27,423 nt of DNA. Origin: a virus. The notes beneath the pieces were generated by a model. That model saw only the letters and a program-made list of their open reading frames with translations. It was not told the DNA's origin and searched no databases. Positions 6,615 through 9,121 of this stretch are shown piece by piece. The first letter of the stretch is position 1. Every line of letters begins with the position of its first letter. The position numbers and the translations under genes are program-made. The stretch spans positions 1-27,423 of the IMG/VR virus record IMGVR_UViG_3300010396_000091; one strand, given 5' to 3'.

Positions 6615-6843
6615 GTTTGAGGAGCGCAAACCCGAGGAGATTCGCGCGTGGCTGGAAGAAAGCGACATCGCGCAGGACTTCGTTGCGTTCTTGGCCGAAG
6701 CGAAAGCGAACAACATTCACATGCTCGTGAATGCAGGGCGCCGCGCGATGGTAACGACAAATGAGGTCGCCCGATACTCAGGAGTGATTGACTTTATCGA
6801 TGGCATCACTTCGATGCTGGAACGCAAACCGGAGAAGAAATGA
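6607..6843 (+). CDS. Small helical hypothetical protein
   Basis: This gene encodes 78 residues with a GTG start behind a strong AAGGAG that lies inside the end of the KGG gene, so the two are translationally linked. The sequence predicts as almost all helix, with an acidic amphipathic N-terminal half (EERKPEEIRAWLEESDIAQDFVAFLAEAK) and a second helical half around YSGVIDFIDGITSMLE. No cysteines, no signal peptide and no recognised motif. Its stop overlaps the co-chaperonin ATG (ATGA). Function unknown; position between portal and co-chaperonin suggests an assembly-related role. Confidence 0.75.
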   Translation: MSKFEERKPEEIRAWLEESDIAQDFVAFLAEAKANNIHMLVNAGRRAMVTTNEVARYSGVIDFIDGITSMLERKPEKK

Positions 6844-7277
6844 GCAAGCTTGACGAACGAATGAAGCAGTACGGAATCCCGCCGATTCCGGGTCTTCCGA
6901 TGGGTAAGACAATCCTCGTGTTCCGCATTCCGCCGGTCGAACGGACGGCAGGCGGCCTCTACATTCCCGAAACCGATCAGGGCGAGCAGGAGATCGGCGT
7001 GTTGCTCGCTGCCGGCCTCGGTGCGATCGACATCCTCAAGGCGGCGCTGATCGAAATCGGCGACGTCATTTGGTTCGGCCGCTTTGCCGGAACCAACCGC
7101 ACCGTTCGGCGCGAGGCCGCGCAGAAGGCCGAGCAGATCACGGCGATGAAGGTCGAAGACGTGCAAATCTCCGTGGATGCCCTTGAACGGTTGAAGGGAT
7201 ACGACATCAAGGAGCTTGCGGTAGAGGGCGAACCTACCGGGCAACACTTCTACGTCCCCAAGAAGAAAGGCAAGTAA
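6840..7277 (+). CDS. GroES-like co-chaperonin
   Basis: The 145-residue protein carries a GroES fold from about residue 22. The first strand is KTILVFRIPPVERT. The mobile-loop end is TAGGLYIPETD (36-46), where LYI stands in the place of the IVL tripeptide that GroES uses to bind GroEL. EIGVLLAAG corresponds to the GEVLAVG strand, IEIGDVIWFGRFAG to VGDIVIF, and MKVEDVQISVDA to the terminal strand. Compared with bacterial GroES (about 97 residues) it has about 20 extra N-terminal residues, an insertion between strands and about 25 extra C-terminal residues. Phage co-chaperonins such as T4 gp31 replace GroES so that host GroEL can fold the capsid protein. The gene lies directly before the scaffold and near the capsid cluster, which fits that role. 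Family call strong, specificity inferred. Confidence 0.85.
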   Translation: MSKLDERMKQYGIPPIPGLPMGKTILVFRIPPVERTAGGLYIPETDQGEQEIGVLLAAGLGAIDILKAALIEIGDVIWFGRFAGTNRTVRREAAQKAEQITAMKVEDVQISVDALERLKGYDIKELAVEGEPTGQHFYVPKKKGK

Positions 7278-8201
7278 ATGGTTCCCGAGAATGACGACGA
7301 GCCGAAGGTTGAAGAGAAGACCGAGGGCGTAACGGTTGATCCGGATGACGTCGAAACTCCGACCGACAAGCCGGCCGAGACCGAGGAGCAGAAGCAGTCC
7401 CGGAAAGAGCGCCGTCAGGCGACCCTGCGCGACGAGAAAGAGGCCCGTCGTCAAGCCGATGAGCGTGCCCGTCTCGCCGAGGAGCGGGTTGCTCGCATCG
7501 AGCGCGATCTCGCCGAGACCCGTGGTTACGCCGCCGCTCTCGGCCAGCGCAACCAGGACGATCCCGCCGCCGCGCGCAAGACCAAGATCGCCTCTCTGGA
7601 AGACGAAGCCGATCGTCATCTCGCGAACGCCGGGATGGCCGCCGCTGCGAAGGACCAGGAACGCGCCAAGGCCGAGATGCGCGCGTACAACGCCAAGCAG
7701 CGCGAGATCGCCAAGCTGGAATTCCGCGCTGAGATGGAACCCGACATCGATCAGCGGTTCCAGCAGTTCCAGCGGCAGCAGCCGATGGCGATGACTCCGC
7801 AGCTCCTCCAGGCCCGCGATAGTCTCCAGCGCGAGTTTCCGTGGCTCACAACGAACAAGCGCGCTCTGGACGCGACCGACGCAGAGGTCGATCGCCGCAT
7901 GCGTTCCGGTCAGCAGTTCTCGTATGAGATGGCCCGAGTTGTCGCAGCCGAGGTTCAGCGCGATCTCAACCTCAAGATCAATACTCCCCCATCCGAGCGC
8001 TCCCGTGCCGCTTACCAGGCCCCCGGCGGCGGCGAAGGCGAAGGCGGCGGCGAAGGTCCCGTGACCGTTCGAATGGGCAAGGCCGAGAAGACGATGGCCC
8101 ACAAGTTGTACCCCGGTCTCGATCCGGCGGAAGCCGAGAAGAAGTGGGCGCGCGAGGTCGGCGCTCCCGAAGCTCGTCGCCAGGCCAAGGCCGGTCGGTA
8201 A
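7278..8201 (+). CDS. Scaffolding protein
   Basis: This 307-residue, highly charged protein has the usual scaffold composition. An acidic N-terminus (residues 1-38, many E and D) is followed by a long Arg/Glu/Ala coiled coil (about 39-155) and a Gln-rich stretch FQQFQRQQ (161-168). After a more globular segment (PWLTTNKRALDATDAEVDRRM), a Gly/Glu linker GGGEGEGGGEG (250-260) leads to a basic C-terminus (MGKAEKTMAHKLYPG...EVGAPEARRQAKAGR) that would bind the capsid shell, as in P22 scaffold. It starts at the ATG immediately after the co-chaperonin stop. The scaffold directs procapsid assembly and leaves before or during packaging. No protease motif is seen. The structured non-coding region follows immediately. 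Confidence 0.8.
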   Translation: MVPENDDEPKVEEKTEGVTVDPDDVETPTDKPAETEEQKQSRKERRQATLRDEKEARRQADERARLAEERVARIERDLAETRGYAAALGQRNQDDPAAARKTKIASLEDEADRHLANAGMAAAAKDQERAKAEMRAYNAKQREIAKLEFRAEMEPDIDQRFQQFQRQQPMAMTPQLLQARDSLQREFPWLTTNKRALDATDAEVDRRMRSGQQFSYEMARVVAAEVQRDLNLKINTPPSERSRAAYQAPGGGEGEGGGEGPVTVRMGKAEKTMAHKLYPGLDPAEAEKKWAREVGAPEARRQAKAGR

Positions 8202-8490
8202 GATTGAGGGAGAGCGTCTCGATCGGGCCGCGAGTCCAAAGGGCTGTGACATGGCCAGCCACGCGGGAGAGACGAGCCCACCGGGGAACGGCCCTTCGGG
8301 GCTGTACGACTCCGGGTTGTCGGCGCCCGCATGCGTTGCCCGTACGCCGGGGCGCCGACATAGAACCTAATCTTCGCGCCGCTCCATCTCGGCGCAAAGG
8401 GGAACCGTCGCCACCCAGGTCTGAACTCCAGCGCGGCGTAGCGCTGAAATCGACGGAGCGCACGGGGACCGCCAGCCGTACTGGCGGGTA
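8202..8490 (+). ncRNA. Candidate structured RNA between scaffold and capsid cluster
   Basis: No convincing gene occupies this stretch, but inverted repeats are dense. A nested domain pairs CGTCTC 8215-8220 with GAGACG 8269-8274, CCGCG 8228-8232 with CGCGG 8262-8266, and GGCTG 8242-8246 with CAGCC 8256-8260. Next comes a UUCG tetraloop hairpin (8289-8304, loop 8295-8298). A perfect 10-bp stem pairs TGTCGGCGCC 8318-8327 with 8351-8360. GCGCCG 8376-8381 pairs with CGGCGC 8390-8395. CCGTCG 8405-8410 pairs with CGACGG 8451-8456 around CAGCGC 8429-8434 / GCGCTG 8441-8446. CCGCCAG 8469-8475 pairs with CTGGCGG 8481-8487 over a 5-base loop. The C(UUCG)G loop favours the + strand as RNA. It matches no RNA class I recognise and is not tRNA-like. 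High GC makes chance stems common, so comparative support is missing. Confidence 0.4.
8469..8487 (+). other. Tight 7-bp hairpin at the end of the structured region
   Basis: CCGCCAG and CTGGCGG form a perfect 7-bp stem over the loop CCGTA. No T-run follows, so it is not a standard intrinsic terminator. It may be the 3' end of the structured RNA or a processing/stability element upstream of the candidate promoter. Confidence 0.45.
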
Positions 8491-8513
8491 GTTCGCTCAT
8501 CCACAGAAAACGT

Positions 8514-8541
8514 TTGCGTCATTACGTAGCTCGTGCATACT
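8514..8541 (+). promoter_or_regulatory. Possible promoter ahead of the capsid cluster
   Basis: TTGCGT (8514-8519), 16 bases, then CATACT (8536-8541) gives a weak sigma70-like pair in a locally AT-richer patch within a GC-rich gap. It would serve the virion gene at 8687 and the capsid genes. The match is modest (3/6 and 4/6). The rest of the gap, 8542-8686, holds further short inverted repeats, for example around 8635-8656, and no gene. Confidence 0.25.
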
Positions 8542-8686
8542 GGTAGCTAGCCTCCGATCTTACTGCGGGTCGGGTACGGTTTCGAAGTAAGCAGCGCCGC
8601 CCGGTAGTTCGGGGTCCGGTGGTCCGTTGACGCCTCTCGCGAATGGCATCGCGAGGAACGGTGAAACGAAGCCATTCGGAGATCCC

Positions 8687-9121
8687 ATGGCACGGCGCAA
8701 GCGACCCGACCCGACCGACACGAACATCCTCTCTGACCCGCAGTACGACCAAGTTCTCAACGCCGACCCGTCCAAGAAGTATTGGTACGTCTCGGATGAG
8801 GACATGCCGACCGCCTTTGGGCGCGGCTACGCGCGCACCGAGCGCAGCGCCAATGGCCCCCGCCCGGCCAAGTGGTACGACGGCATCGCCGATCACGGCC
8901 CCGGCTACCGCGTCAACAACCAGCTCACGTTGATGGAAATCGACAAGGAGCGCGGCGAGGCGATCCAGCACGCCGCCGAGGAACGCCATAACCGCGTCCT
9001 CAAGGCGACGCAGGCGAAGATCAAGGACCCGTCGCAGGACGACACCCGATATCTGTCCTATTCGAAGGACCCCGGCTACCGCAACCGTTTCAACGTCACC
9101 GCGTCTGAGGAGGCTCGATAA
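8687..9121 (+). CDS. Hypothetical virion-associated protein upstream of capsid genes
   Basis: The ATG at 8687 has GGAG 5 bases upstream and is preferred over an in-frame TTG at 8627 that lacks a good ribosome site. The 144-residue protein is hydrophilic, with a basic start (MARRKRPDPTD), Tyr/Trp/Asp-rich short motifs (KKYWYVSDEDMP, AKWYDGIADHGPGYR) and a central charged helix (MEIDKERGEAIQHAAEERHNR). It has no signal peptide, membrane segment or enzyme motif. Sitting 3 bases before the putative decoration gene and ahead of the major capsid gene, it is probably a minor head component or assembly factor. The function is unrecognised. Confidence 0.75.
   Translation: MARRKRPDPTDTNILSDPQYDQVLNADPSKKYWYVSDEDMPTAFGRGYARTERSANGPRPAKWYDGIADHGPGYRVNNQLTLMEIDKERGEAIQHAAEERHNRVLKATQAKIKDPSQDDTRYLSYSKDPGYRNRFNVTASEEAR

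What the first reader, a model, noticed from the sequence alone, without database searches (positions are those of the whole stretch)
8202..8490. Dense nested inverted repeats: candidate new structured RNA ahead of the capsid genes
The only long non-coding gap in a gene-packed window holds a three-level nested stem (8215-8274), a UUCG tetraloop hairpin (8289-8304), a perfect 10-bp stem (8318-8360), a two-level stem (8405-8456) and a 7-bp hairpin (8469-8487). It could be a cis regulator of the scaffold-to-capsid switch, a phage small RNA or a packaging-type RNA. No known class is recognised.
Basis: partly seen in the sequence, partly recalled or inferred. Interest (0 to 1): 0.72.

Follow-up and report, generated by a model that had tools for sequence, protein, structure and literature searches.

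The report
A new phage small-RNA module
The gap before this phage's capsid genes encodes a previously unrecorded RNA with a nearly invariant 31-letter hairpin core that turns up once per genome in about 50 very different uncultivated phages, in one case built into a tRNA in place of its anticodon loop, which suggests that phages use it to grip some conserved partner.

Summary
The inverted repeats are real. Folding energy alone would have dismissed them (z -1.0 on the + strand), but comparison does not. Window 8232-8262 is one copy of a 31-nt module, P1-[G]AGUCCAAAG-P2(5 bp)-UGACAUGGC-P2'-A[C]-P1'. It occurs in about 60 IMG/VR contigs (49 distinct copies), one per record. P2 is Watson-Crick paired in 240 of 240 cells and all five pairs change on both sides. 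Rfam, INPHARED, PLSDB, about 1,360 bacterial genomes and the papers searched gave no match.

The module sits on unrelated scaffolds: a three-hairpin RNA (here, 8215-8370), a multibranch RNA, plain hairpins, and once a full tRNA body whose anticodon loop is replaced by a 71-nt arm. About half of the testable long records have it within 2.5 kb of the terminase gene. Close relatives of this phage lack it, and some copies are antisense to their neighbours. I read it as an accessory, trans-acting small RNA that binds a conserved, probably host, factor (confidence 0.45). The partner is not shown. A packaging role is the main rival.

Positions 8371-8490 are not conserved. The imagined cis-regulator is probably a second RNA downstream (8550-8689), in the capsid operon's 5' UTR.

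The parts
8232..8262 (+). RNA A core module GAGUCCAAAG-GGCUG-UGACAUGGC-CAGCC-AC
   Evidence: R1 model match 8226-8268, 63.8 bits; P2 covariation; about 60 viral contigs
8228..8266 (+). P1 stem closing the module (8228-8231 with 8263-8266)
   Evidence: sequence; P1 covariation across phages; G-U pairs over-represented
8215..8274 (+). outer stem CGUCUC/GAGACG (8215-8220 with 8269-8274) beyond an asymmetric internal loop
   Evidence: sequence; L026 has a different but complementary stem (AGGAAGCC/GGCUUCCU) at the same place
8281..8315 (+). hairpin 2: 8281-8286 with 8310-8315, carrying inner cUUCGg hairpin 8289-8304
   Evidence: sequence and fold; CCGGGG..CUCCGG kept in L026, which lacks the inner hairpin
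8318..8360 (+). hairpin 3: 11-bp perfect stem 8318-8328/8350-8360
   Evidence: inverted repeat I5; different but complementary stem in L026
8361..8370 (+). conserved 3' tail AUAGAACCUA (L026: AUAGGACCUA)
8371..8490 (+). rest of the flagged region; stems present, no homologue with conserved structure found
8513..8541 (+). promoter-like TTTGCG-17-CATACT of the capsid operon; most relatives have TTGAC(A/T) here
   Evidence: alignment of relatives; inferred, not recognised by the generic scan
8550..8580 (+). leader RNA B unit 1 (GCCUC-stem-GGNAY-GGU)
8596..8620 (+). leader RNA B unit 2 (variant, UCC bulge)
8632..8662 (+). leader RNA B unit 3
8611..8686 (+). long stem 8611-8622 with 8672-8686 that buries the ribosome-binding site (GGAG 8678-8681) and abuts the ATG at 8687
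   Evidence: folds of window, L001, L003 and L025; compensatory changes by eye in L002, L003, L004, L005
7278..8201 (+). upstream gene, probable scaffold by position (no family match)
8687..9121 (+). first gene of the capsid operon (144 aa, no family match)

Best explanation
RNA A (window 8215-8370) is an accessory phage small RNA that acts in trans. Its working part is a 31-nt binding module whose two loops (AGUCCAAAG and UGACAUGGC) are set exactly 5 bp apart by P2; whatever scaffold is at hand stabilises and displays it. The module most likely grips a factor that hardly varies among hosts, such as a host protein or a defence or antitoxin component that the phage decoys or neutralises. Shown: the module, its RNA-level conservation, scaffold swapping, one copy per record, sporadic presence. 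Inferred: transcription, processing, trans action, host partner, decoy role.
For: Covariation: 12 of 12 pairs change on both sides, score 0.599 against 0.220 shuffled, P2 fully paired. G-U pairs make up 21 of 40 non-Watson-Crick cells in inner P1 (expected 1/6, p 2e-7), which points to RNA, not DNA. Letters the search patterns left free are still nearly invariant. P2 is strictly 5 bp: the length-variant scan gave only chance hits. Scaffold swapping includes a tRNA body, 47.2 bits in Rfam's tRNA model, anticodon loop replaced by 71 nt (L138). Two flanking genes both antisense in 6 of 48 loci. One copy per record in 48 of 48. 29 records of relatives lack it. No accessory phage gene shared by carriers at BLAST sensitivity.
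Against: No partner, transcript or phenotype is known. Clustering near terminase and portal genes is not explained by a host-directed role. No cellular counterpart was seen in about 1,360 genomes, so an antitoxin being mimicked is hypothetical. In most loci the RNA is co-directional with its neighbours (18 of about 30 with both neighbours scored), so co-transcription is common. The lack of a shared gene rests on BLAST; a distantly related phage protein could be the partner.
Confidence: 0.45

Rival explanations
1. It is a packaging or head-assembly RNA, like the phi29 pRNA in role: the module docks on portal or terminase and the scaffold varies.
For: Terminase large subunit within 2.5 kb in 10 of 19 long records (2.6 expected, p 4e-5; 7 of 16 after dropping three of the four class-A records, p 0.0034). 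Terminase and portal lead the families around the module. In several loci it lies between terminase and portal genes.
Against: Relatives with the same capsid proteins (MCP up to 94% identical) lack it in the same gap, and 29 records lack it altogether as far as the contigs go. The RNA is near-invariant while the terminases fall in many families. Nine of the 19 long records have it more than 2.5 kb from the terminase (up to 157 kb).
Confidence: 0.22
2. It is a cis-acting element of late transcription, such as a put-like antiterminator read by RNA polymerase, or another co-transcriptional regulator.
For: Mostly co-directional with late genes and placed ahead of long operons; RNA polymerase is a conserved partner.
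Against: Both flanking genes antisense in 6 loci; one copy sits inside a tRNA body expected to be excised by RNase P and Z; in the window a new promoter-like site follows it.
Confidence: 0.12
3. It is an aptamer for a small molecule, as riboswitch or sink.
For: Two invariant loops at fixed spacing, variable stems, no shared protein partner.
Against: No consistent downstream gene or expression platform; tRNA and multibranch scaffolds make no riboswitch sense.
Confidence: 0.07
4. It is a self-cleaving ribozyme.
For: Scattered distribution and invariant loops resemble small ribozymes; theta ribozymes of gut phages are tied to tRNAs (PMC10879173, title and abstract).
Against: No hit to any Rfam ribozyme even at E 5; sits inside an otherwise intact tRNA body.
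Confidence: 0.04
5. The conserved unit is DNA, for example a cos/pac or recombination site near terminase.
For: Proximity to terminase genes.
Against: Excess of G-U pairs in P1, free covariation of both stems with loops fixed, tRNA-embedded copy.
Confidence: 0.03

Closest known systems
AbiF antitoxin RNA motif (RF03085) and type III toxin-antitoxin RNAs
   Same: 33-35 nt hairpin modules that neutralise a toxin by direct RNA-protein binding, active in trans (PMC12373285)
   Different: No Rfam match for our RNA; single copy, not repeated; no toxin gene shared by carriers; no cellular copy found
phi29 pRNA (phage packaging RNA)
   Same: phage small RNA; ours is often near packaging genes
   Different: No sequence or Rfam match; scaffold not conserved; absent from close relatives with the same head proteins
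GOLLD, ROOL and similar large ornate RNAs
   Same: orphan structured RNAs linked to phages (GOLLD and ROOL described in PMC12286853; phage link from general knowledge)
   Different: Conserved part is only 31 nt and moves between scaffolds; no Rfam match
RNA anti-CRISPRs and phage-borne ToxI mimics (recalled, not tested)
   Same: small phage RNAs that decoy host defence
   Different: Our module matches no Rfam family; partner unknown
tRNA (RF00005)
   Same: L138 keeps acceptor, D and T arms at 47.2 bits
   Different: Anticodon loop replaced by the module, so it cannot decode

Membership tests
phi29-type pRNA | match to the Rfam pRNA model | tested here: not met
   no hit in window or 16 carrier loci at gathering, none at E 5 in 8100-8760
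phi29-type pRNA | needed by the packaging motor, so kept by relatives | tested here: not met
   29 records of MCP relatives without it; fragments, so not absolute
phi29-type pRNA | binds the connector/prohead | not testable with these tools
   needs binding assay
AbiF / type III antitoxin RNA | match to RF03085 or other antitoxin RNA model | tested here: not met
AbiF / type III antitoxin RNA | adjacent toxin gene | tested here: inconclusive
   no gene shared by carriers beyond clusters of a few related phages at BLAST sensitivity; defence library (padloc) not run
AbiF / type III antitoxin RNA | neutralises a toxin in trans | not testable with these tools
   needs toxicity assay
HDV-like (theta) and other small ribozymes | match to a ribozyme covariance model | tested here: not met
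   E up to 5
put-type antiterminator | always sense to, and upstream of, the operon it serves | tested here: not met
   6 loci antisense to both neighbours
tRNA | anticodon loop | tested here: not met
   L138 matches the tRNA model but with 71 nt in place of the loop; L121 and L142 tRNA-like readings not confirmed by the model

The most novel reading that the evidence does not exclude
A class of phage RNA built around one near-invariant 31-nt grip that phages transplant between scaffolds, including a tRNA used as a display frame, to capture a universal bacterial factor during infection.
Probability: 0.4. Interest if true: 0.92.

Novelty: categorically new. Interest (0 to 1): 0.8.

Why it matters
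If the module binds a host factor, its extreme conservation across unrelated phages points to a target that bacteria cannot easily change, and the 31-nt hairpin can be made and used as bait at once. It would also be a natural case of the tRNA-scaffold trick that engineers use to stabilise RNA. If instead it is a packaging RNA, it would extend such RNAs beyond phi29-like phages. Either way the motif and model let others annotate a feature that standard phage annotation does not see.

Tried and rejected
Folding-energy test: not informative. Group I intron or other known RNA inserted at the scaffold stop: no Rfam hit. Cellular copies: none in 399 (model) and about 1,360 (pattern) genomes. Cultured phages and plasmids: no match of the 31-mer. 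P2-length variants: three hits, all chance. Chance hits discarded by structure: L123, L133, L151, L182, L183, L185. Generic promoter/terminator scans around the copies: promoters upstream in 6 against 2 in control, terminators 1 against 1, not informative. Shared accessory gene: none. tRNA reading of L121 and L142: not supported by the tRNA model; L158 not tested with it. Literature: motif strings matched 343 papers, and the 20 listed were unrelated; other searches found no description.

Full report
What is in the window. The window is a 27,423-base IMG/VR phage record. The gap between a probable scaffold gene (7278-8201) and the first gene of the capsid operon (ATG 8687) is 485 nt. The listed stems exist, but the + strand folds no better than shuffles (z -1.00 for 8202-8500, -0.80 for the whole gap); the - strand gives z -2.17. 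By energy alone the finding would fall.

Relatives and the first surprise. The major capsid protein led to relatives L001-L005 and others. In the closest (94% identical MCP) the gap is about 200 nt and lacks the flagged sequence; only window 8458-8686 aligns. But L026 (54% identical MCP) has a homologous RNA in the same place: GAGTCCAAAGGGCTGTGACATGGCCAGCCAC against GAGTCCGAAGAGCTGTGGAGTGGCCAGCTAC, then CTCCGGGTTG-hairpin-CATAGRACCTA, with the long stem of hairpin 3 wholly different yet complementary in each.

The module is widespread. A pattern built from these two (17 fixed letters) hit 45 IMG/VR stretches; nearly all share the letters left free. I put the chance expectation at a handful; that is my estimate from an assumed collection size, not a tool result. 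A second pattern that left P2 free hit 52, and P2 was complementary in the true members. A third that relaxed the apical loop added one true member, L184. A fourth for other P2 lengths gave only chance hits. Altogether about 60 contigs hold 49 distinct copies.

Covariation. On 48 distinct copies (alignment A3) all 12 pairs have changes on both sides, the covariation score is 0.599 against 0.220 +/- 0.017 shuffled, and sliding partners by one column drops pairing from 87% to about a third. P2 has 240 of 240 Watson-Crick cells; in the inner four P1 pairs 21 of 40 non-Watson-Crick cells are G-U against 1 in 6 expected (p 2e-7), so selection is on RNA. Caveats: positions fixed by the search patterns are conserved by ascertainment; P2 was fixed in part by pattern 1 but free in pattern 2; related phages are counted separately.

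Scaffolds. In L138 the Rfam tRNA model matches at 47.2 bits (gathering 29) with acceptor, D and T arms present and a 71-nt stretch holding the module where 6 nt of anticodon loop should be. L121, L142 and L158 look tRNA-like by eye, but the model did not confirm L121 or L142, and L158 was not tested. Eleven loci (L118, L124, L126, L139, L145, L157, L162, L166, L170, L175, L178) share a multibranch RNA closed by CAACACG/CGTGTTG with a CUGG-NN-GACG-NN-CAG side hairpin (eight of them aligned; the others carry identical arms). Others are long plain hairpins, such as L125 and L168. Window and L026 share the three-hairpin form.

Where it sits. Each of 48 records has exactly one copy, from 4 kb to 481 kb. 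Terminase large subunit and portal lead the families around it. In 19 long records with a terminase, 10 have it within 2.5 kb of the module (2.6 expected, p 4e-5; non-redundant 7 of 16, p 0.0034). Twenty-nine records of MCP relatives lack it. In 6 loci both flanking genes are antisense to it (the window row of that call rests on a spurious minus-strand ORF). No accessory gene is shared among carriers at BLAST sensitivity.

What it is not. No Rfam family, no match in cultured phages or plasmids, none in 399 Pseudomonadota genomes by model (strict filters) or in about 1,360 genomes by exact pattern. The rate in bacterial genomes cannot be compared with that in viral contigs, because I do not know the size of the viral collection.

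How it most likely works. Two invariant loops at a fixed 5-bp spacing, unrelated scaffolds, a tRNA frame that would be processed out of its transcript, single copy, patchy presence and antisense placement argue for a discrete RNA that binds something in trans. Because the RNA barely changes while the phages share almost nothing, I infer a partner that is conserved among hosts. Decoy or antitoxin mimicry is the reading with precedent: the AbiF antitoxin modules are 33-35 nt hairpins that act in trans (PMC12373285). None of these steps is shown experimentally. Packaging is the strongest rival because of position.

The second RNA. Downstream, 8550-8689 is the 5' UTR of the capsid operon and is conserved across the lineage. 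It holds tandem units GCC-UC-stem-GG-NAY-GGU (8550-8580, a variant at 8596-8620, 8632-8662). Such units occur 15 times in 3.4 kb of leaders against 5 times in 327 kb elsewhere (285-fold), with only two more of the GCCTC type in 5 Mb of other loci, both in this lineage. Pairing is 99.3% and covariation 0.585 against 0.128 shuffled (units chosen by their flanking letters, and two entered with a hand-corrected register). A longer stem buries the ribosome-binding site. This is where a scaffold-to-capsid regulator is most likely to be.

Noticed in passing
window 8550-8689: Second structured RNA: tandem bulged hairpins (GCCUC..GGNAYGGU) and a stem over the ribosome-binding site in the capsid operon leader, found only in this phage lineage among the loci scanned.
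   Followed up: partly
L162 2200-2316 (+) and L170 1743-1859 (-): Rfam Betaproteobacteria-1 RNA (RF02932, 95.6 and 91.1 bits) about 640 nt downstream of the module, ahead of terminase; hints at betaproteobacterial hosts for that group.
   Followed up: partly
window 6840-7277: A co-chaperonin GroES-like gene (phrog_3188, E 4.9e-07) sits between the portal and scaffold genes.
   Followed up: no
window 8455-8492: This stretch aligns with the last codons and stop of the scaffold gene in L001, so RNA A appears as an insertion of about 270 nt at the scaffold's 3' end.
   Followed up: partly
window 8469-8487: The 7-bp hairpin has a counterpart at the end of the L001 scaffold gene with two compensatory differences around the same CCGTA loop; two sequences only.
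   Followed up: no
L022, L023 and L024, gap after the scaffold gene: Relatives carry a small ORF there that reads as a CxxC zinc-finger-like protein, so this gap seems to be a general insertion spot.
   Followed up: no
window 8202-8500, minus strand: The reverse strand folds better than shuffles (z -2.17); no explanation.
   Followed up: no
L134 9918-12288 and L153 9855-11759: Copies of the module lie inside phage tRNA clusters of 21 and 9 tRNA genes.
   Followed up: partly
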